DNA of 64,000 nt, taken from NCBI GenBank assembly GCA_030690165.1, contig JAUYHF010000042.1, forward strand, positions 1-64,000, written 5' to 3'. Every line of letters begins with the position of its first letter. Positions within the stretch are counted from its first letter, which is position 1. The notes under the pieces were generated by a model that was given only the letters and a program-made list of their open reading frames with translations, did no database searches and was not told where the DNA came from. The translations under genes and the position numbers were made by a program. Shown here one piece after another: positions 2,219 through 22,159 of the stretch. Source of the stretch: Deltaproteobacteria bacterium. GTDB lineage: Bacteria; Desulfobacterota; GWC2-55-46; UBA9637.

Positions 2219-5200
2219 TCAATCTGTTATCTTCAATATTACACCCCCTATCTTCCCGCCCCTGTATTTTACTATAATGGGATATTCGCTTCCCTTTCCG
2301 TTTATGGAATACTTTTTCCACATATCTCTATTTGTATCAATCAAATAGCCCCTGTCTTCCCCTGTATTTTTATTTTTATCCCCTGTAAAACCAAGCAGAT
2401 TTACGACAATACCATTGGCCGGGACGCCTCCTGCGTCTGCGGAAACAATCTTTATCTTATCCCCTCTTTTTACTTTAAGTGTTTCGCCGTTAAAAACCGT
2501 TTCTTTCCCGCTGCTATTTATCTCAAATGTGAGCGTCAATAATCTTGGCTTATCTGATACATCAGGAGCGGTTTCAGGCATTGCCTCAGGCAGAACAACT
2601 TTATCTTCAGGCGCATGTTGAACCTCCGGCGGCACAGTCTTAATTGCCGGCGGCTCGGTTGCTGGTAAATTGACAGGTTCTACTTTTTCAACAGGTCCTG
2701 GCGCATTAGAACCTGAGAAGAGAGTAATTTCCTGTAAGATATTATAATTGGCAATAACAGCCACCATGGTTCCGGCCGCAATTACAACAATAAATGTTTT
2801 TAACAGGAAGCTGTTTTTTGCAAAGAACCCATTCTTTTTTTCATCAACCTCAAATGAAACAAAGGAAGTATCTGGTTGATGCGTCCCTTCTTCAACGTTA
2901 GGCAGACGCCATTCACTACCCCTGTCATCACCGACAATGCCGGTTGTTTGCCCCGGTAATACCATTTTAAATCCCTCCTCACCCTGATCGTCTCCCTCAA
3001 GTGGAGAGGGACTGGCGTCAGGTTGAACCGCCCTCTTGTCCATTTCGCTTTTTACAACACCTACTACCATATTGACCACTTGTTCATTTACAAGCCTTTT
3101 TACCTTTTCTGTAACCTCATCTACTACAGATACAGGGTCAAATTGGGGCGCCCTTTTTTCAATTTCCTTTTTTACTGCCTCTTCCACTGCCGCGGCTATT
3201 TGTCCGCTTATAATCTTTCTTATCTCTTCCTCAGAGAGAGCGTCTGCCTTTTCTTCTACAGGCTCAATCTGTTGAACCGCCCTCTTGTCTATTTCGCTTT
3301 TTACAACACCTACTACCATATTGACTACTTGTTCATTTACAAGCCTTTTTGCCTTTTCTGTAACCTTATCCACTACAGATACAGGGTCAAATTGGGGCGC
3401 CCTTTTTTCAATTTCCTTTTTTACTGCCTCTTCCACTGCCGCGGCTATTTGTCCGCTTATAATCTTTCTTACCTCTTCCTCAGAGAGAGCGTCTGCCTTT
3501 TCTTCTATAGGCTCAATCTGAGGAAGTTTTTCATCCACCTTTGTGTCAATACTGCCTTCTGCGGCTTTGACAATCTGCTCGTCTATAATGTGGGTTGTCC
3601 TCTTCATCGCCATATCAAGGCTCAAGTCGCAGATTTTATTTATCATCTCCGGATTGCCAAAACTCGCATTGTATATGATTTTAACTGCCCAAGGGGTTAT
3701 CTCAAGTTTTCCTTCTCCACCGGCTAATGCGAGTCTTTTAGAGATATATTCTTTTGTCTCTTCATGGCCAAGCGGGTGCAGGTGATGTATCCCTGAGATG
3801 CCCTGTTTAATCTCTTTAAGGTGGGGCGCATTCAATATATTTTTTATATCAGACTGGCCGGAGAGAATTATATTATCAATCCCTGTTTGCAATAAAGTTC
3901 TTACAGCCCTTAATGTATTGGCATTAAATTTGTCTGCATTATCAAATATTACAACGGTTCGCCCCCTTGCTTCCCTGCACATAAAAGAATGCGCGTGGAG
4001 GGCGGAGACAACGTTCTCTACAGAATCATTGGCGGTTTTTATTCCAAGCTCATTTTTAATTGCGATTAAAATATCTAACCCGCTGCTTTCCGTTGCAATG
4101 CTTTGCTGCAACAGAAGCCCATCTATATACACAAACGCTATCTTTTCATCTGCAAGCTCATCCATTGTTTTAAGACACATGCTTGTTTTACCGCTTCCTT
4201 TTACCCCTGTAAGGAGGATAATATTAGCCCTATTGCTTTTAATATTGTTTAAAAGGAAATATAATGCCTCAGAATGCGCATCCCCAAGATATAATAAATC
4301 CGGGTCAGGCAAAAGGTCAAACGGGTTTTTGGTTAAATGAAAATAGTCAATATGGTCTTTCTTCTGAACGTCAGAGCCGGACATTATCTTGATAAGCGCG
4401 AGTTCTTTCCTGGCCTTAGGCAGAAATGGATTTTTTTTAAGCGCTGCTGCCAGACCGCCCTCAGCCTCTTTAAATAAACCCTCTCTTATATAAAGTTTTG
4501 CAAGGAAAAGATGGGCTATGTCCATGTCAGGATTGATAGAGAGCGATTCCATAAGGAGGTTCTTGGCCTTTACCGTATCATGGGGATGCGTGTTAAAAAT
4601 CGCCCAGCCGAGATATGCCTTATATTCTGCCTCATCGGGATTGAGTCTTACTGCTTCTTCAAATGAAGCTGCTGCTTTTTCATAATCTTTTTTGGCAAGG
4701 TGTGTTTTCCCATTCTGGAATATGAGTTCGGCATCTGTCTTTTTCTCCGGCTCATAAGCCTCCTCTTTTGCTTCGGTTGATTCAAGCTTGTAGACTGAAC
4801 CAACAACACCGGCAACAGGTTCATCCTTTGAAGATATAATATCTGTTATTATGAAGCCGTATGTCAGAAGTTCAGCCTTCCGATGGAGGAGATCAGAATT
4901 ATTTATCACTTCTTTTGTTTTGCTTTTGCCGTCAAATTTGGCAAGGAAGCGGCTCTCCTGGATATTTAAACCGAGGTCTTCGATTTTATACGGCTTGCTT
5001 GGCGAAAGAGCAAGGGGTTTGTCCATAAACTTTTTAAGCAGAGCCTCCACCTGTTCAATCTGGCAATATCCATTTAGTATTCCGTTTATTATCAGCAAGG
5101 CAGGATTCATGGGTAGCAATTGGAGATTTGCCGGCAGGCTGCCCTTAACTAAAAAATACTTATAATTTCCATCCGGCCAGCTAAAGATTTTCCATATCTT

Positions 5201-5545
5201 TTTTTTCATCTGAAGCGCAAGGCAGTCGTCAAGTTCTTTTTGCGATATAAACCCCATAGAAATAAGGACCTCGCCATGTCTTTTCTTTTGCTTTAACATT
5301 ATCTCCAGCGATTTTTCATAAGCCTCTTTTGAGATAATGCCTTCTTCCAACATCACCCTGCCAAGCACATCGTTCATACTGTTGGAGGAAACATTAACAG
5401 GCCAGCCTTTTTTAAAGTATATCCTCCTCTTTAACATTCCCCTTGTAACGTCCATGATGTTTGCCGGGTCGCTGCGGAGGGATATAGTATGCAGCAGTTT
5501 TAGCAAAGGGTTATCTTTAAGGTCATTCCATTTTTTTTCAGACAC
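2219..5545 (-). CDS. Multidomain DUF4388 (PATAN)/TPR/ExeA-type AAA ATPase with one membrane segment
   Basis: 1108 residues from a GTG with GGAGGT upstream. Order of parts: an N-terminal DUF4388/PATAN-like region with two type-IV-pilus-like helical segments (about 1-240); TPR repeats (about 265-395, for example A-A-A-S-F-E-E-A-V-R-L-N-P-D); an ExeA/GspA-type AAA ATPase starting Y-F-H-L-T-K-N-P-F, with Walker A G-V-K-G-S-G-K-T-S near 440-450 and Walker B V-V-I-F-D-N-A-D; two exact-length 83-residue amphipathic repeats (676-841); a low-complexity linker; a transmembrane helix (about 915-936); a Pro-rich spacer; and a C-terminal beta domain, presumably periplasmic. ExeA proteins use ATP to help build secretin channels, so a role in cell-envelope machine assembly is plausible. 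No secretin or pilus gene is nearby. The combination of domains is unusual. Confidence 0.7.
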   Translation of the reverse strand: MSEKKWNDLKDNPLLKLLHTISLRSDPANIMDVTRGMLKRRIYFKKGWPVNVSSNSMNDVLGRVMLEEGIISKEAYEKSLEIMLKQKKRHGEVLISMGFISQKELDDCLALQMKKKIWKIFSWPDGNYKYFLVKGSLPANLQLLPMNPALLIINGILNGYCQIEQVEALLKKFMDKPLALSPSKPYKIEDLGLNIQESRFLAKFDGKSKTKEVINNSDLLHRKAELLTYGFIITDIISSKDEPVAGVVGSVYKLESTEAKEEAYEPEKKTDAELIFQNGKTHLAKKDYEKAAASFEEAVRLNPDEAEYKAYLGWAIFNTHPHDTVKAKNLLMESLSINPDMDIAHLFLAKLYIREGLFKEAEGGLAAALKKNPFLPKARKELALIKIMSGSDVQKKDHIDYFHLTKNPFDLLPDPDLLYLGDAHSEALYFLLNNIKSNRANIILLTGVKGSGKTSMCLKTMDELADEKIAFVYIDGLLLQQSIATESSGLDILIAIKNELGIKTANDSVENVVSALHAHSFMCREARGRTVVIFDNADKFNANTLRAVRTLLQTGIDNIILSGQSDIKNILNAPHLKEIKQGISGIHHLHPLGHEETKEYISKRLALAGGEGKLEITPWAVKIIYNASFGNPEMINKICDLSLDMAMKRTTHIIDEQIVKAAEGSIDTKVDEKLPQIEPIEEKADALSEEEVRKIISGQIAAAVEEAVKKEIEKRAPQFDPVSVVDKVTEKAKRLVNEQVVNMVVGVVKSEIDKRAVQQIEPVEEKADALSEEEIRKIISGQIAAAVEEAVKKEIEKRAPQFDPVSVVDEVTEKVKRLVNEQVVNMVVGVVKSEMDKRAVQPDASPSPLEGDDQGEEGFKMVLPGQTTGIVGDDRGSEWRLPNVEEGTHQPDTSFVSFEVDEKKNGFFAKNSFLLKTFIVVIAAGTMVAVIANYNILQEITLFSGSNAPGPVEKVEPVNLPATEPPAIKTVPPEVQHAPEDKVVLPEAMPETAPDVSDKPRLLTLTFEINSSGKETVFNGETLKVKRGDKIKIVSADAGGVPANGIVVNLLGFTGDKNKNTGEDRGYLIDTNRDMWKKYSINGKGSEYPIIVKYRGGKIGGVILKITD
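2879..3021 (-). repeat. In-frame inserted low-complexity element within the ATPase gene
   Basis: This stretch, read on the minus strand, encodes S-P-S-P-L-E-G-D-D-Q-G-E-E-G followed by P-G-Q-T-T-G-I-V-G-D-D-R-G-S. Its composition is unlike the helical repeats before it or the membrane segment after it. The DNA contains the partial palindrome CCCTCTCCACTTGAGGGAG (on the minus strand), of the kind seen in nomadic intragenic repeats. The reading frame stays open. The call is from composition and my recollection of similar P-L-E-G-E inserts. Confidence 0.4.
3022..3519 (-). repeat. Tandem duplication, two 249-bp units inside the ATPase gene
   Basis: Units 3022-3270 and 3271-3519 are nearly identical and exactly 83 codons long, so the frame is kept. 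Each encodes E-x-A-D-A-L-S-E-E-E followed by amphipathic helices with K-K-E-I-E-K-R-A-P-Q-F-D-P and ending K-S-E-[IM]-D-K-R-A-V-Q. The few differences (for example V/I in E-E-[VI]-R-K) point to a recent duplication. The repeats lie between the ATPase domain and the membrane helix and would lengthen a cytoplasmic stalk. Confidence 0.9.
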
Positions 5546-15619: not shown

Positions 15620-16390
15620 ATGGGTTTGCTGAATAATAAAAAGGGAATCATTTTCGGCGTTGCAAACGAGAGGAGCATTGCATGGGCGATAGCGCAGGCG
15701 CTGCATAAAGAAGGGGCGGAGCTTGCATTTACATATGTTGGAGATGCGCTTAAAGAAAGGGTTATGCCGCTGGCTCAGGGCATTGGTTCAAAACTGATTC
15801 TGCCATGCGATGTGGCAAAGGATAATGAGATAGATGCGGTGTTTAACACGGTTAAAGAGGCATGGGGCGGATTGGATATCCTCGTTCACTCTGTTGCCTT
15901 TGCAAATAAGGATGAGCTAAAAGGCATGTATGCGGATACCTCAAGAGAAGGCTTCAGGCTGGCAATGGATGTGAGCGCCTATTCCCTTGTGGCATTGGCA
16001 AAGCGGGCATATCCGTTAATGGAAGGCAGAAGCGGAAGCATTATAACCTTAACCTATTATGGCAGCGAAAAGGTTATTCCCAATTATAATGTCATGGGTG
16101 TTGCAAAGGCGGCGCTTGAGGCAAGCGTTAAGTATCTTGCGGCTGACCTGGGGCAGAAGGGCATAAGGGTCAATGCCATATCAGCGGGCCCTGTAAAGAC
16201 CCTTGCAGCCATGGGCATTGCAGGTTTCAGGGATATATTGAACGTCGTAGAAAAAAAAGCGCCTTTGAAGCGAAATGTCACAACAGAAGATGTAGCAAAG
16301 ACAGCCCTGTATCTCTTAAGCGACCTGTCCAGCGGAGTTACAGGCGAGATTATCTATGTGGATGCAGGATATAATATTGTGGGAATGTAA
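15620..16390 (+). CDS. fabI: Enoyl-[acyl-carrier-protein] reductase (NADH)
   Basis: 256 residues, SDR fold. The N-terminal [14 protein letters not shown] is diagnostic of FabI, and the catalytic Tyr/Lys are in Y-N-V-M-G-V-A-K near residues 156-163. S-A-G-P-V-K-T-L-A follows, as in FabI substrate loops. It makes the last reduction of each fatty-acid elongation round. AAGGAGG precedes the ATG. It appears monocistronic, with a palindrome-bearing promoter. Confidence 0.93.
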
Positions 16391-16471
16391 ATTTACTTGC
16401 GCAGGTTTAGTCATAGGTAAAGCCATTGAAAGATTATAGAGCAAACCGAGATATGCTGAAAAAAAGGCGCT

Positions 16472-16552
16472 ATGAAAGAATTGTCTAATAGTCAACTTGA
16501 AAAGATTATAAGTCTTCTGGAAAAAGGGAAGGCATTCCAAATTTACTCATGA
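16472..16552 (+). pseudogene. 26-codon ORF, possible N-terminal relic of a DNA methyltransferase
   Basis: Encodes M-K-E-L-S-N-S-Q-L-E-K-I-I-S-L-L-E-K-G-K followed by six residues and a stop. The L-E-K-I-I-S-L-L-E-K-G-K stretch resembles the usual beginning of type III/adenine-specific methyltransferases. It lies just upstream of a restriction-modification gene. It may be the scar of a lost gene or simply a chance short ORF. The rest of the 188-bp gap shows nothing further. Confidence 0.3.
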
Positions 16553-16578
16553 AAAACTTGATATAAAGAAAGATTGCA

Positions 16579-19500
16579 ATGCTCAAATCATATCTAAAAC
16601 GAATATTTGAAGTTGCTAAAAGAGGAGATGCCAGAGAAGAAAGCTATTATTCCTGTCTTGAGGAACTTCTTAAAAATTACTCTGAGTCTATCAACAAAAA
16701 ACATATCCAGACTACCACTCTGCCCAAAAAAACGGATGCCGGAAATCCTGATTTCAGAGTATGGGATGGAAAACAGCATATAGTCGGATATATTGAAGCC
16801 AAAGCCCCAGCCGTTGAGCACTTAGACCAGATAAAAGAAACCGAACAATTAAAACGCTATTTGCACACCTTCCCCAATCTGATACTCACCAACTTCTTTG
16901 AATTCCGTTTCTATCGGGAAGGTCAATTGGTAGATAAAGTCCAGATTGCAAGGCCATATGTAATACACAAACTCGGAACAATTCCGCCTGTCGAAAAAGA
17001 AAAGGAGTTTTTCAGTCTCCTTGAAAAATTTTTCTCATTCTCTCTGCCAAAGACATACACTGCAAAGACCCTTGCAGTGGAGCTTGCAAAGAGGACAAGG
17101 TTTTTAAAAGAACAGGTTATCATTGAAGAACTTAAGCAAGAAGAAAAGAAGGGGAAAGGCAATATCTTTGGATTTTATCAGGCGTTTCAGAAATTTCTTA
17201 TCCACGGCCTCACAAAAGAAGATTTTGCAGACCTCTACAGCCAGACAATCACCTACGGACTTTTTGCCGCAAGGACAAGGGCAGAAAATGGTTTTAACAG
17301 AAGACTTGCCTTTGACTACATTCCGCAAACAATCGGAATATTAAGGGATGTCTTTAAATTTATATCCCTTGAAGACCTGCCACCGCAGATGGAATGGATT
17401 GTTGACGATATATCTGAAGTCCTATCTGTTGCGGATGTCAAACAGATTCTCCATAAATTTTATCATGAAGGTAAAGGAAGCGACCCCATCATTCACTTTT
17501 ATGAAACATTCCTTGCCGAATATGACCCGCAGGCAAGAGAAAAAAGGGGCGTTTATTACACCCCTGAACCCGTAGTCTCTTACATTGTCCGTTCTTTAAA
17601 CATAATCCTGAAACAATATTTCGGCAAGCAGGACGGTTTTGCCTCAAGCTCGGTTACCGTGTTGGACCCTGCGGCAGGGACACTCACCTTTCTTGCTGAA
17701 ACAAGCAAGCTTGCCGTAGAGGAATTTACCTCCAAATACGGAGACGGCGGCAAGAAAGACCTTATTAAAACCCATATCCTTAAGAACTACTATGCCTTTG
17801 AACTGATGATGGCCCCGTATGCAGTCGGACATTTGAAGATGTCCTTCCTTCTTGAGGAACTTGGATATAAACTCCAGAAGGACGATAGATTTAAACTTTA
17901 TCTCACCAACACCCTTGAGATGGAGGAGCTTGAGCAGACCTTTTTGCCCGGCATGGCATCATTGTCTGAGGAATCACATTTGGCAGGCGCGGTAAAGAAA
18001 GAGCAGCCGATACTTGCAATCCTCGGCAATCCGCCATATTCAGGCCATTCAACAAATATAGGAGATTGGATAACAAAAGAGATTAAGGCTTATTTTCATG
18101 TTGACGGAAAACCCCTTGGCGAGAAAAATCCAAAATGGCTTCAGGACGATTATGTTAAGTTTATCCGTTTTGCACAATGGAAAATAGACACAGCAGGCGA
18201 AGGTATTTTAGGTTTTATCACCAACCACAGCTACCTTGACAACCCCACATTCAGGGGGATGCGTCAATCTCTCATGCAAAGCTTTGATGAGATTTATCTC
18301 CTTGACCTGCACGGCAATAGTCTTAAAAAAGAAAAATGCCCCAATGGAAGCAAAGATGAGAATGTCTTTGATATCCAGCAGGGCGTTGCCATTGCTCTGT
18401 TCATCAAGAAAAAAGGTTTGAAGAAAAAGATTTCCCATGCGGAACTTTGGGGACTGAGAGAGGACAAATACGACTGGCTCAATAAGCATGACATAAAAAG
18501 CACAAAATGGAAAAAGATAAATCCTAAATCCGAGTTCTACCTTTTTATTCCGAGAGATGAAGGGCTTTTAAAGCAGTATGAGCGCTATCCTAAAATCACG
18601 GAAATCTTTCCGGTAAACAGCGTTGGCATTGTGACGGCAAGGGATAATTTCGTCATTGATGCCGACAAAGGCGCTTTGCGGAGACGGATACTACAATTCA
18701 GGGATAAAAAGTTGTCTGACGAGATTATTCAGCAGACTTATGGTCTTAAGGATAAGGCAAACTGGAAATTAAAGGATTCAAGAGAAGCTGTCATGAAAGA
18801 TGATAATTGGGAAAAGGGAATAACAAAAATTCTCTACCGTCCTTTTGATGAGCAGTGGATTTTCTATCACGATGCTTTAATAGAACGTTCACGCAAAGAA
18901 GTCATGCAGCACATGATGAAAGATAATTTGGGATTAGTTGCAGTAAGGCAGGTTGCCGAAGGCATTTTTAATCACACCTTTGTAACAAATAGTATTATTG
19001 AAAGCCGTGTAACACTAAGTAACAAAGGGATTGCATTTCTTTTCCCCCTCTACCTTTACCAGCAAAAAGACAAACCTAAAAAACACTCTTTTGGCAGCAC
19101 CATGATGCTCTTTGAACCTCAGGCAGAATACGGAGTAAAAAAGCCGAATCTATCTCCAGCCTTAATTGAACAATTAAAAAAGGACTTTAAGAAAGAGCCA
19201 ACCCCTGAACAAATCTTTTATTACATCTACGCTATTCTTTATTCAAACACCTACCGCACAAAATATGCTGAGTTTTTAAAGATAGATTTTCCGAGAGTCC
19301 CTTTTACCAGTGATTACAAACTATTTGTTAAGATGGGACAATATGGAGAAAAACTCGTCAAACTGCATCTTCTAAAATCATCAGAGCTTGATAAACCTGT
19401 TGCCAGATTTCAAGGCAATGGAACTAATAAAATTGAAAAGCTGGGATACGAAAAAGGAAAACTCTACATCAATAACGACCAGTATTTTGAAGGCATTGCG

Positions 19501-19689
19501 CCGGAAGTCTATGAATACCAAGTAGGCGGTTATCAGGTCTGTGAAAAATGGCTTAAGGATAGAAAGGGCAAGTCTTTATCACTTGATGATATAAAACATT
19601 ATTGTATGGTTGCTACCTCCATCCAAAAAACAATTGAAACCCATAAGGTGATAGATTGTAGTTATCTAAAAGTGGAGGAAAAGGTTTGA
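16579..19689 (+). CDS. Fused restriction endonuclease/N6-adenine methyltransferase (type IIG/ISP-like)
   Basis: 1036 residues. The N-terminus carries a PD-(D/E)xK-type nuclease core: G-N-P-D-F-R-V followed by Y-I-E-A-K-A (about 55-75). The middle is an N6-adenine methylase with motif I as D-P-A-A-G-T-L-T-F (near 362; the second Gly of the usual D-P-x-x-G-x-G is Leu) and catalytic N-P-P-Y near 483. The C-terminal third is probably target recognition. Type ISP enzymes carry a helicase in the same chain; here it is absent, and a helicase fragment lies just downstream, so the enzyme may act alone like type IIG. A weak AGAAAG precedes the ATG. Confidence 0.8.
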   Translation: MLKSYLKRIFEVAKRGDAREESYYSCLEELLKNYSESINKKHIQTTTLPKKTDAGNPDFRVWDGKQHIVGYIEAKAPAVEHLDQIKETEQLKRYLHTFPNLILTNFFEFRFYREGQLVDKVQIARPYVIHKLGTIPPVEKEKEFFSLLEKFFSFSLPKTYTAKTLAVELAKRTRFLKEQVIIEELKQEEKKGKGNIFGFYQAFQKFLIHGLTKEDFADLYSQTITYGLFAARTRAENGFNRRLAFDYIPQTIGILRDVFKFISLEDLPPQMEWIVDDISEVLSVADVKQILHKFYHEGKGSDPIIHFYETFLAEYDPQAREKRGVYYTPEPVVSYIVRSLNIILKQYFGKQDGFASSSVTVLDPAAGTLTFLAETSKLAVEEFTSKYGDGGKKDLIKTHILKNYYAFELMMAPYAVGHLKMSFLLEELGYKLQKDDRFKLYLTNTLEMEELEQTFLPGMASLSEESHLAGAVKKEQPILAILGNPPYSGHSTNIGDWITKEIKAYFHVDGKPLGEKNPKWLQDDYVKFIRFAQWKIDTAGEGILGFITNHSYLDNPTFRGMRQSLMQSFDEIYLLDLHGNSLKKEKCPNGSKDENVFDIQQGVAIALFIKKKGLKKKISHAELWGLREDKYDWLNKHDIKSTKWKKINPKSEFYLFIPRDEGLLKQYERYPKITEIFPVNSVGIVTARDNFVIDADKGALRRRILQFRDKKLSDEIIQQTYGLKDKANWKLKDSREAVMKDDNWEKGITKILYRPFDEQWIFYHDALIERSRKEVMQHMMKDNLGLVAVRQVAEGIFNHTFVTNSIIESRVTLSNKGIAFLFPLYLYQQKDKPKKHSFGSTMMLFEPQAEYGVKKPNLSPALIEQLKKDFKKEPTPEQIFYYIYAILYSNTYRTKYAEFLKIDFPRVPFTSDYKLFVKMGQYGEKLVKLHLLKSSELDKPVARFQGNGTNKIEKLGYEKGKLYINNDQYFEGIAPEVYEYQVGGYQVCEKWLKDRKGKSLSLDDIKHYCMVATSIQKTIETHKVIDCSYLKVEEKV

Positions 19690-19885
19690 CCCTAACAAAT
19701 ATGAGGCTTTCTTGTATGCCATCTGTGGAGACAGGGAATATCAAAAAGAGGCTGCCAGGGAAGTTTTACGGTACTTTTTATGCGAAGAATATAGAAGCCT
19801 CAGATTTAACTATCACAGCAATCAAAAGAGAGCAGAAATATTATTTCAAGTTTTTATCTCCAACGAGTTATGGTATCTTCTTTAA
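19670..19885 (+). pseudogene. Truncated N-terminus of a DEAD/DEAH helicase (R-M partner)
   Basis: In the frame overlapping the methylase stop, the DNA encodes F-D-P-N-K-Y-E-A-F-L-Y-A-I-C-G-D-R-E-Y-Q then K-E-A-A-R-E-V-L-R-Y. This is the recognisable beginning of helicases that accompany this class of methylase. It stops at 19883-19885 before any Walker A motif, and no start codon is found in the frame before it. A deletion has apparently removed the helicase body. The competing 87-residue frame (19686-19949) looks like its shadow. The rest of the gap up to 19990 holds nothing clear. Confidence 0.6.
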
Positions 19886-19990
19886 GACGCTGCGGGAAAG
19901 GACTTATGGAGACTTCAAATTAGAGATTGATGCGAGGTTGACAGGGTAGCGTTGAATGCGGCAATGAAATAGATAGATTAAAACTTACCT

Positions 19991-22159
19991 ATGACACAAC
20001 AAAACGCCAAATCTTCCGATAAACAATCCCTTCTTAAACTCATACAGGATAAGGCCTACAGGCCGCTGTCTTTCAAGGACCTTGCCAGAGAATTAGCTGT
20101 TCCTAAAAAAGAAAATGGACTGTTTAAGGGGCTGCTGAATGAATTGATTAAAGACGGCCATATTATAAAAATAAGCGGTGAAAGATACGGCGTCCAGGCA
20201 AAGATGAATCTTATTGTGGGCGGGCTTATCTGCCATCCTAACGGCTTTGGTTTTGTCGCGCCGGAAGACGGGGGCGTAGATATATTCATAAACCCCAGAA
20301 ATCTAAAAGGCGCAATGCACGGTGATAAGGTTGTGGCGAGGATTGAAGGACGCGGCAAGGGCGATGGAAAGAAAGAGGGAAGGATTATAAGGATTCTTGA
20401 GAGAAGGCATAAAACAATTGTCGGCAGATTTGAAAAGAGGAAGGGGTTTGGGGTTGTCATCCCTTCTGAAGAAAGAATTCTTCACGAGGTTATAATTCCC
20501 CCAAAGGATAGCAGACATATTGAGGATGGTAAAATTGTAGAGGCAGAGATAATTAGATGGCCTGCTGAGCATATTGCACTTCTTGGAAAGATTATCGCTG
20601 TTCTCGGAGACCATGATGACCCTGATGTTGAGATCGAGGTTATAGTAAAAAAATACAGCCTGCCGCATAGATTTCCCCATAATGTAATTGAAGAGGCAAA
20701 GGCCATATCGCAGGAGGTGGCTGGAGACGACATCGCAGGGAGGGTGGATTTAAGAGAGAGGAGAACGGTTACAATTGACGGAGAGACGGCAAAAGATTTT
20801 GACGATGCGGTTTCTATAGAAAGAACGGCTAAAGGATACAGGTTATGGGTGTCTATAGCGGATGTCGCTCATTATGTAAAAGAGGAAACCCTCCTTGATA
20901 AAGAGGCTTACACAAGGGGGACAAGCGTATACTTTCCTGACAGGTGCATCCCTATGCTTCCTGAGGCATTGAGCAACGGCATATGCAGCCTGAATCCGCA
21001 TGTTGACAGGCTTACGCTGACGGCAGAGATGGATTTTGACCATGAAGGGAATATTATCCGGAGTAAATTTTACGAGAGCGTCATAAAAAGCTCTGCAAGG
21101 CTGACCTATACAAATGTGAAGGATATTCTTACCGGCAATGACGAAACGATTAAAGAAAAATACAGCCGCCTCGTGGACGACTTGAAGATAATGGAGGAAC
21201 TCTGTTTGAAACTCAGAGAGAGGCGGGCGGAGTTGGGAAGCATTGATTTTGACCTGCCTGAGCCGCAGATAATCATTGATATAGAGGGGAAGGTTGAAGG
21301 CATTGTAAAATCAGAGAGAAACATAGCCCATAGGATAATAGAGGAATGTATGCTTGCGGCAAATCAGGCTGTTGCAAGTTACATTACTCAATTGAAACTT
21401 CCATTTCTCTACAGGGTTCACGAAGAACCTGATAAGGAAAGCATTTATGAGTTTAAAGAGTTTATCGGAAATTTCGGGTATCATCTAAAGGAAAATAATT
21501 TAAGTCCCAAAACCCTTCAGAAAGCGCTGCTGGAGGCAGAGGGAAAGCCCGAAGAGAAACTGATAAATCACATCCTGCTCCGCTCCATGAAACAGGCGAG
21601 GTATTCGGAAAAAAATATGGGACACTTCGGCCTTGCATTTGAGTATTACACGCATTTCACATCCCCAATACGCAGATACCCTGATTTAGTGGTCCACAGG
21701 ATTTTGAAAAAATGGATAAGAGAAAAATATTCCGGAAAGGATAAGGAATATTGGGGAAATGCCCTTCCTGAGATTGCAGGCCATACATCAAAGAGGGAGA
21801 GAAATGCAATGGAGTCAGAAAGGGAGGTCGTTGATTTAAAAAAGGCGCAGTTTATGATGGATAAGGTGGGCGAGGTTTATGATGGTATCATATCCGGCGT
21901 TACCAGCTTCGGCTTCTTTGTGGAGATTGAGGAATATTTTGTGGAGGGGCTTGTGCATGTTACAAATCTGAAAGATGACTATTATACCTTTATGGAAAAG
22001 GAGCACTCGCTTGTCGGAGGCCATACAAAGAAAAGATATAGGATAGGGGACAGGGTAAGGGTAGTCGTGACAAATGTAGGTATTGAGCGGCGGCAGATAG
22101 ATTTGGCGCTGGAAGGACAGGTAATCGGAGCAAAACGGGCAAGAGGCAAGAGAATATGA
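19991..22159 (+). CDS. rnr: Ribonuclease R
   Basis: 722 residues with the RNase R domain order. A helix-turn-helix-like start is followed by cold-shock domains (G-F-G-F-V-A-P near 80 and G-F-G-V-V near 150). The RNB catalytic domain has T-I-D-G-E-T-A-K-D-F-D-D-A-V (about 258-271, the metal-binding aspartates) and later H-F-T-S-P-I-R-R-Y-P-D-L. A C-terminal S1 domain (G-V-T-S-F-G-F-F-V-E-I) precedes a basic tail. It degrades structured RNA 3' to 5'. Its stop overlaps the next start by four bases (ATGA). Confidence 0.95.
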   Translation: MTQQNAKSSDKQSLLKLIQDKAYRPLSFKDLARELAVPKKENGLFKGLLNELIKDGHIIKISGERYGVQAKMNLIVGGLICHPNGFGFVAPEDGGVDIFINPRNLKGAMHGDKVVARIEGRGKGDGKKEGRIIRILERRHKTIVGRFEKRKGFGVVIPSEERILHEVIIPPKDSRHIEDGKIVEAEIIRWPAEHIALLGKIIAVLGDHDDPDVEIEVIVKKYSLPHRFPHNVIEEAKAISQEVAGDDIAGRVDLRERRTVTIDGETAKDFDDAVSIERTAKGYRLWVSIADVAHYVKEETLLDKEAYTRGTSVYFPDRCIPMLPEALSNGICSLNPHVDRLTLTAEMDFDHEGNIIRSKFYESVIKSSARLTYTNVKDILTGNDETIKEKYSRLVDDLKIMEELCLKLRERRAELGSIDFDLPEPQIIIDIEGKVEGIVKSERNIAHRIIEECMLAANQAVASYITQLKLPFLYRVHEEPDKESIYEFKEFIGNFGYHLKENNLSPKTLQKALLEAEGKPEEKLINHILLRSMKQARYSEKNMGHFGLAFEYYTHFTSPIRRYPDLVVHRILKKWIREKYSGKDKEYWGNALPEIAGHTSKRERNAMESEREVVDLKKAQFMMDKVGEVYDGIISGVTSFGFFVEIEEYFVEGLVHVTNLKDDYYTFMEKEHSLVGGHTKKRYRIGDRVRVVVTNVGIERRQIDLALEGQVIGAKRARGKRI

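What the first reader, a model, noticed from the sequence alone, without database searches (positions are those of the whole stretch)
16472..19949. Restriction-modification locus caught in decay
A long nuclease-methylase gene is intact, but its helicase partner survives only as about 70 codons (F-D-P-N-K-Y-E-A-F-L...) with no start codon, and a 26-codon methylase-like start precedes it. The methylase could still protect or modify the genome, while ATP-dependent cutting by the helicase would be lost. Motif I has Leu in place of the second Gly (D-P-A-A-G-T-L-T-F).
Basis: partly seen in the sequence, partly recalled or inferred. Interest (0 to 1): 0.5.

Follow-up and report, generated by a model that had tools for sequence, protein, structure and literature searches.

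The report
Intact restriction gene in rival's wreck
A complete single-gene DNA cut-and-protect enzyme sits inside the leftover ends of a different, destroyed restriction system, so the helicase scrap beside it belonged to the old system and is not a missing part of the intact one.

Summary
Window 16579-19689 encodes an intact 1036-aa nuclease-methylase. The methylase-like start upstream and the helicase scrap downstream are real, but are the two ends of another system, a type III-like mod-res operon. The mod start (16472) ranks first of 2,772 window ORF starts against a profile of relatives. The catalytic motifs between are gone.

The intact gene is a helicase-less type IIG/IIL enzyme related to DrdV and LlaBIII. 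Its full-length relatives are 1016-1094 aa, too short for a motor, and no res match was found in the flanks held for 80 homologues. Leu in motif I is normal: 51 of 55 Leu, 4 Met. So the old mod-res operon decayed, not this enzyme. In six relatives the fabI-rnr gap is 52-776 nt without this gene. Best reading: one RM gene replaced another. A readable scar of RM turnover, not a new kind of system.

The parts
15620..16390 (+). left flank: enoyl-ACP reductase-like gene (fabI; name recalled from reading)
16472..16552 (+). remnant of the start of a type III-like Mod methylase: 26 codons in frame, the first 20 align with Mod residues 1-20; Mod-like reading (KLDIKKDC) continues in the next frame up to about 16572
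16579..19689 (+). intact 1036-aa type IIG/IIL-like restriction-modification enzyme (nuclease, helical region, gamma-class adenine methylase, Type_ISP_C specificity domain)
16744..16803 (+). PD...EAK nuclease motif (residues 56-75); D58, E73 and K75 in 57 of 57 aligned rows
17665..17691 (+). methylase motif I DPAAGTLTF; the Leu is the family residue (51 Leu, 4 Met of 55)
18028..18039 (+). methylase motif IV NPPY, 57 of 57 rows
19679..19821 (+). remnant of the Res N-terminal part (residues about 23-77); the TGA of the intact gene lies inside it (AGGTTTGACCC shared with Res DNA)
19812..19949 (+). remnant of the Res C-terminus (residues about 786-830) in another frame; about 700 codons between the two Res pieces are missing. 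The two pieces overlap by a few bases in these coordinates because the exact joint cannot be placed
19991..22159 (+). right flank: ribonuclease R-like gene (rnr; name recalled from reading)

Best explanation
Shown: the locus is a complete type IIG/IIL-like gene lodged between the two ends of a mostly deleted type III-like mod-res operon, at a variable site between fabI and rnr. Inferred function: the single protein recognises a DNA site with its C-terminal domain, methylates an adenine there with its central gamma-class domain, and cuts unmethylated sites with its N-terminal PD-(D/E)XK domain without ATP or a helicase. Inferred history: a mod-res operon first occupied the site. The IIG reading frame then replaced the body of mod and the start of res, leaving about 34 mod codons before it and joining res at about codon 24 behind it. 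A separate internal deletion removed about 700 codons of res. The IIG gene may now be transcribed from the old mod promoter (not tested).
For: Mod remnant: rank 1 of 2,772 starts. Res N and C ends: E 5e-19 and 4e-12. Mod-Res pairs in other genomes: L098, L174, L176, L177, L101 and a Curtobacterium plasmid. Elsewhere in the same genome the only other Res matches are partial, 27-43% identical; the C48 one, checked, is a helicase that does not match either Res scrap (E 0.7 or worse). Intact gene: PADLOC IIG model E 3.6e-270 in two stretches; motifs kept; 1 private departure from otherwise invariant columns, other rows 0-8. Helicase-less: residue 304 aligns with LlaBIII 845 but residue 307 with DrdV 285; Pfam finds no helicase domain; best fold match DrdV. 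Site: gap between fabI and rnr matches 52 nt in G002, 216 in G004, 546-776 in G003, G005, G006, G007. An IIG relic in G009 ends KTEEKI* like the window's KVEEKV*, so the C-terminus looks native.
Against: No genome was found with an intact mod-res operon at fabI-rnr, so the order of events is inferred. The Mod scrap is short and its BLAST score alone lies within the range of the controls. The window is from a 70-contig assembly, so a chimeric joint cannot be excluded without reads. The structure model is mediocre (mean pLDDT 69.7, pTM 0.48), weakest at the nuclease and part of the methylase. Activity, recognition site and cofactors are untested. The 8-nt match at the right joint may be coincidence.
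Confidence: 0.85

Rival explanations
1. One reading: the nuclease-methylase and a separate helicase formed one ATP-dependent system; the helicase decayed and only modification remains.
For: The helicase scrap directly follows the gene, and the C-terminal domain is the Type_ISP_C domain of enzymes that have a helicase in the same chain.
Against: No Res match in the flanks held for 80 relatives; the 57 full-length rows are 1016-1094 aa; Res is found next to Mod instead, and a Mod start lies at the other end of this locus.
Confidence: 0.04
2. The IIG gene first entered as an extra gene between complete mod and res genes (as other genes do in L175) and the deletions came later, step by step.
For: L175 carries two other genes between mod and res with res intact; the same genome's C48 mod operon also has a gene between methylase and helicase; res in the window shows a separate internal deletion.
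Against: Needs two deletions that stop within about 6 nt of the IIG start and at its stop codon without harming it; one replacement needs fewer coincidences.
Confidence: 0.3
3. Assembly chimera: the joints are artefacts.
For: Draft assembly of 70 contigs, no reads available here; the genome holds a second IIG copy, 72% identical.
Against: The second copy is too different to collapse with this one, its flanks differ, and a frameshifted Mod start and an internally deleted Res are not what a simple mis-join makes.
Confidence: 0.06

Closest known systems
DrdV (PDB 7lo5, 7lvv); that it is a type IIL enzyme is recalled
   Same: best fold match over nearly the whole chain (E 4e-29); sequence match with residue 307 on DrdV 285, so about the same length before the methylase; chain of 1029 aa
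   Different: 18-19% identity in the fold alignment; recognition site unknown here; model of modest quality
LlaBIII and LlaGI (type ISP)
   Same: methylase and specificity part, residues 304-992 on LlaBIII 845-1522, E 6e-42; Type_ISP_C domain
   Different: no helicase-like motor in the chain. PMC4872093 (passages read) says ISP enzymes resemble type IIL except for an inserted helicase-like ATPase; here that insert is absent
PADLOC family PDLC03610, Type IIG restriction enzyme-methyltransferase
   Same: E 3.6e-270 in two stretches, the best from residue 500 to 1025
   Different: no difference seen; the intact gene looks like an ordinary member
Type III RM (mod and res)
   Same: the remnants are the ends of a methylase (Pfam N6_N4_Mtase in L098) and of a ResIII helicase with a PD...EIK stretch
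   Different: the L098 Res matches the PADLOC type III Res models only weakly (best E 1.5e-10), so 'type III-like'
Replacement of RM by Ssp systems in Acinetobacter baumannii (PMC12421847; title and start of abstract in a search listing only)
   Same: one defence system taking the place of another
   Different: not read further, so no detailed comparison; in the window both ends of the old operon remain around the new gene

Membership tests
Type IIG (IIL subgroup) RM enzyme | one chain with N-terminal cleavage domain, gamma-class adenine methylase and specificity domain | tested here: met
   motifs and domains; fold match to DrdV. The nuclease rests on the conserved PD...EAK motif; the Pfam nuclease hit is below cut-off
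Type IIG (IIL subgroup) RM enzyme | cuts at a fixed distance from its site without ATP | not testable with these tools
   needs purified protein
Type IIG (IIL subgroup) RM enzyme | no separate protective methylase (IIL) | tested here: inconclusive
   flanks are fabI and rnr; the window's other ORFs were listed but not all annotated, and the genome has other methylases
Type ISP RM enzyme | helicase-like ATPase in the same chain between nuclease and methylase | tested here: not met
   no Pfam helicase; residue 304 aligns to LlaBIII 845; no PDB sequence match in the first 300 residues
Type ISP RM enzyme | ISP C-terminal specificity domain | tested here: met
   PF18135, E 7e-90
Type III RM (remnants) | mod and res in tandem, methylase plus SF2 helicase with nuclease | tested here: met
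   tandem in L098, L174, L176, L177, L101; domains and motifs checked in L098 only; in the window only the two ends remain
Type III RM (remnants) | a working catalytic core | tested here: not met
   DPPF, FAGSGTT, ATGKS, DEAH, GRGLR and PD...EIK positions of L098 all fall in the missing parts

The most novel reading that the evidence does not exclude
This IIG family spreads as an almost bare reading frame: start codon to stop codon, with only a few bases of its own on either side, dropped into existing operons by short-homology recombination and expressed from the host promoter. In the window it overwrote a resident RM operon and kept that operon's leader, so one RM gene displaced another and took over its transcription. 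The second copy in the same genome, lodged between oppC and oppD with 3 nt before its start codon, would be another case.
Probability: 0.2. Interest if true: 0.5.

Novelty: new member of a known kind. Interest (0 to 1): 0.3.

Why it matters
It turns a supposed crippled enzyme into a probably working one, and shows RM turnover recorded in one place: both ends of the old operon still bracket the newcomer. An annotator who reads the helicase scrap as a lost subunit would predict no restriction; the better prediction is ATP-independent restriction. It also gives a clear test of whether single-gene RM systems move as bare reading frames into operons, and which promoter then drives them.

Tried and rejected
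Rejected: that the IIG gene and the Res fragment are operon partners. Rejected: that Leu in motif I marks a dead methylase. Rejected: that the IIG gene lost its C-terminus at the joint; I first read the stop as supplied by Res, but relatives and the G009 relic end alike, so the stop may belong to both. Tested and not supported: that IIG genes sit unusually tightly against their neighbours. Downstream same-strand gap of 20 nt or less in 19 of 52 versus 143 of 465 background pairs, p 0.43; exact 4-nt overlap 9 of 52 versus 45 of 465, p 0.10. dN/dS against the six nearest relatives was uninformative because dS is saturated. A viral-contig scan for Res found no relative. NCBIfam gave no family. 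Searches on RM replacement and remnants listed the Acinetobacter paper; I opened none of the papers those two listed, so I claim no absence of precedent. A 2010 paper on mobile RM forms, known to me by recall and cited in PMC3874152, is not held.

Rows dropped before counts: the 57-row alignment keeps only loci whose first tblastn match starts by residue 8, reaches residue 1000 and reads 980 codons or more without a stop; split, frameshifted and cut loci were left out. Two near-duplicates were then removed.

Full report
WHAT IS THERE. Between a fabI-like gene (15620-16390) and an rnr-like gene (19991-22159) lies one long open frame, 16579-19689, 1036 aa. Upstream, a frame starts at 16472 and stops after 26 codons. 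Downstream, a frame without a start runs from 19685 for 66 codons.

THE LONG GENE. Pfam finds the type ISP C-terminal specificity domain at 675-1019 (E 7e-90) and an N6 methylase domain at 303-490; a nuclease model (HSDR_N_2) at 52-112 is below its cut-off. PADLOC's type IIG model fits with E 3.6e-270 in two stretches. NCBIfam has no model. A genome scan found 82 relatives and kept 80 loci, 49-80% identical in their best segment. I aligned 57 full-length rows including the window, 55 after removing two near-duplicates; split, broken and cut loci were left out. Their lengths are 1016-1094 aa. The nuclease residues D58, E73 and K75, and NPPY, are present in all 57 rows. At the motif I position the 55 rows show 51 Leu and 4 Met, so Leu for Gly is the family's normal state. 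Of columns otherwise invariant, the window departs in 1; other rows depart in 0 to 8. Nothing suggests decay of this gene.

NO HELICASE IS MISSING. Type ISP enzymes carry nuclease, helicase-like ATPase, coupler, methylase and recognition domain in one chain (start of the abstract of PMC4666363 in a listing; passages of PMC4872093 and PMC3874165). PMC4872093 states that type ISP enzymes resemble type IIL except for the inserted helicase-like motor. In the window protein residue 304 aligns with LlaBIII residue 845, while residue 307 aligns with DrdV residue 285, so some 540 residues of the ISP chain are absent and the length is that of DrdV. The first 300 residues match no PDB sequence, and Pfam sees no helicase. 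An AlphaFold2 model from a 25-row alignment is of modest quality (mean pLDDT 69.7, pTM 0.48). It shows a mixed N-terminal part, then helices at about 126-322, then the methylase region. Foldseek ranks six DrdV chains first (best E 4e-29), then LlaBIII and LlaGI, then MmeI. That DrdV is classed as type IIL is recalled.

WHAT THE SCRAPS ARE. A search of 147 relatives with the 66-aa scrap gave 6 of 147, the window's own genome included; 395 genomes of the phylum with a 41-aa piece gave 10 of 395, the own genome included. The clear hits are the N-terminus of an ~830-860-aa DEAD/DEAH helicase that follows a ~650-720-aa methylase directly in L098, L174, L176, L177, L101 and a Curtobacterium plasmid. 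In L098 the methylase is Pfam N6_N4_Mtase and the helicase ResIII; PADLOC calls the first type II/III methylase and the second, weakly, type III restriction enzyme. Mapped back on the window, Res residues 23-90 align at 19679-19864 (62% identity, E 5e-19; the last part of that alignment is poor) and Res residues 786-828 at 19812-19940 in another frame (53%, E 4e-12). The Mod N-terminus aligns residue for residue with the frame at 16472; a profile from eight relatives' Mod starts puts it first of 2,772 ORF starts in the window, 2,115 of which were scored (17.6 bits; next independent start 6.5). Against this, its pairwise BLAST score of 26.6 bits is within what controls reach (26.9). The catalytic motifs of L098 Mod and Res all fall in the missing stretches.

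A SECOND COPY OF THE HELICASE? Not found. Other Res matches in the genome are partial, 27-43% identical. A cousin of the methylase (736 aa, 34% over 448 residues, E 2e-65) lies on C48, followed by a 539-aa gene and an 891-aa helicase. That helicase aligns with Res only at 27% over the helicase core and does not match either Res scrap (E 0.7 or worse). So the genome has another Mod operon, distantly related, but not a copy of the lost one.

IS RES A PARTNER OF THE LONG GENE? The evidence says no. Mod and Res proteins from three operons were searched against 99 loci that hold the IIG gene or parts of it: no Res match, and weak partial Mod matches in two. Of 54 full-length loci, 49 had an upstream and 52 a downstream neighbour to look at. 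A search of 90 loci with the scraps themselves gave nothing better than E 0.19.

THE SITE AND THE JOINTS. The gap between the fabI and rnr matches is 52 nt in G002, 216 in G004, and 546-776 in G003, G005, G006 and G007. The longer gaps hold other genes, which I read as a nucleotidyltransferase, a carbonic anhydrase and another small protein without profile tests. In G001 the contig ends before rnr, so nothing is shown there. The left joint lies about 6 nt before the IIG start codon: Mod-like sequence runs to about 16572. At the right joint AGGTTTGACCC is shared with Res DNA, and L012's IIG gene ends in GGTTTGA, so a match of about 8 nt may have guided the join. PMC3031569 (passages) reports reciprocal recombination of an RM plasmid at 1-3 bp identities in 2 of 28 products, so joins of this kind have precedent. 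This step is inference.

HOW IT MOST LIKELY WORKS. As a stand-alone type IIG/IIL enzyme: recognition by the C-terminal domain, adenine methylation by the central domain, cutting by the N-terminal domain, without ATP. The same genome carries a second, intact copy (G000:C9, 1089 aa), 81% identical over residues 1-606 and 67% over the rest, so the two may read different sites. It lies between genes that read like oppC and oppD (names recalled). Of eight oppC loci looked at, two carry the IIG gene (own genome, G006), two have oppD directly after oppC (G005, G013), and four have something else there.

VERDICT. An ordinary, apparently mobile RM gene stands in the ruins of another. Interest is modest, because RM turnover is well known; what is nice is that both ends of the old operon are still readable.

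Noticed in passing
L069, L070, L071, L072, L074, L080, L088: In seven relatives the IIG gene is split at the same seam (about residue 610-617) into a nuclease-methylase ORF and a specificity ORF with its own start, and different genes lie in between: Bro-N (L069, L074 by Pfam; L088 by reading), Y1 transposase-like (L070 by Pfam; L071 by likeness), DUF559 (L072), HEPN plus nucleotidyltransferase (L080). It recalls extra genes linked to type I hsd operons, such as prrC (PMC3710099, passages). L086 may be another case and was not resolved.
   Followed up: partly
G000:C9:11119-14376 (L154 6111-9377, minus): Second intact IIG copy in the same genome between oppC-like and oppD-like genes, 3 nt after oppC; likewise in G006 (L158). 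oppC is followed directly by oppD in G005 (L187) and G013 (L193).
   Followed up: yes
16391-19990 and L147-L152: The fabI-rnr gap is a variable site: 52 nt in one relative, other genes in several.
   Followed up: partly
G000:C48:15322-21958 (L195): Another operon with a Mod cousin (736 aa), a 539-aa gene and an 891-aa helicase in the same genome.
   Followed up: partly
L175, 1067-2871: Two genes, DNA-binding-like and DUF1016-like by reading, sit between mod and res of a related operon.
   Followed up: no
L161, about 3995-4418 (G009:C35): An IIG relic in another genome with only residues about 1-40, 164-197 and 964-1036 left.
   Followed up: partly
L077 and L079 (Thermaceae): IIG homologues interrupted at another place, about residue 827-854, by about 535-610 nt.
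   Followed up: no
L014, L015, L065, L157, L028, L058: IIG genes appear to sit inside housekeeping operons, for example next to genes that read like pdxJ and acpS, yggS and proC, efflux pump genes, or rpsP (names recalled from reading). Spacing is not unusual statistically.
   Followed up: partly
window 2219-5545, minus strand: The 1108-aa ORF contains two nearly identical copies of a stretch of about 80 residues (ADALSEEE...IRKIISGQ...), an internal duplication (by reading).
   Followed up: no
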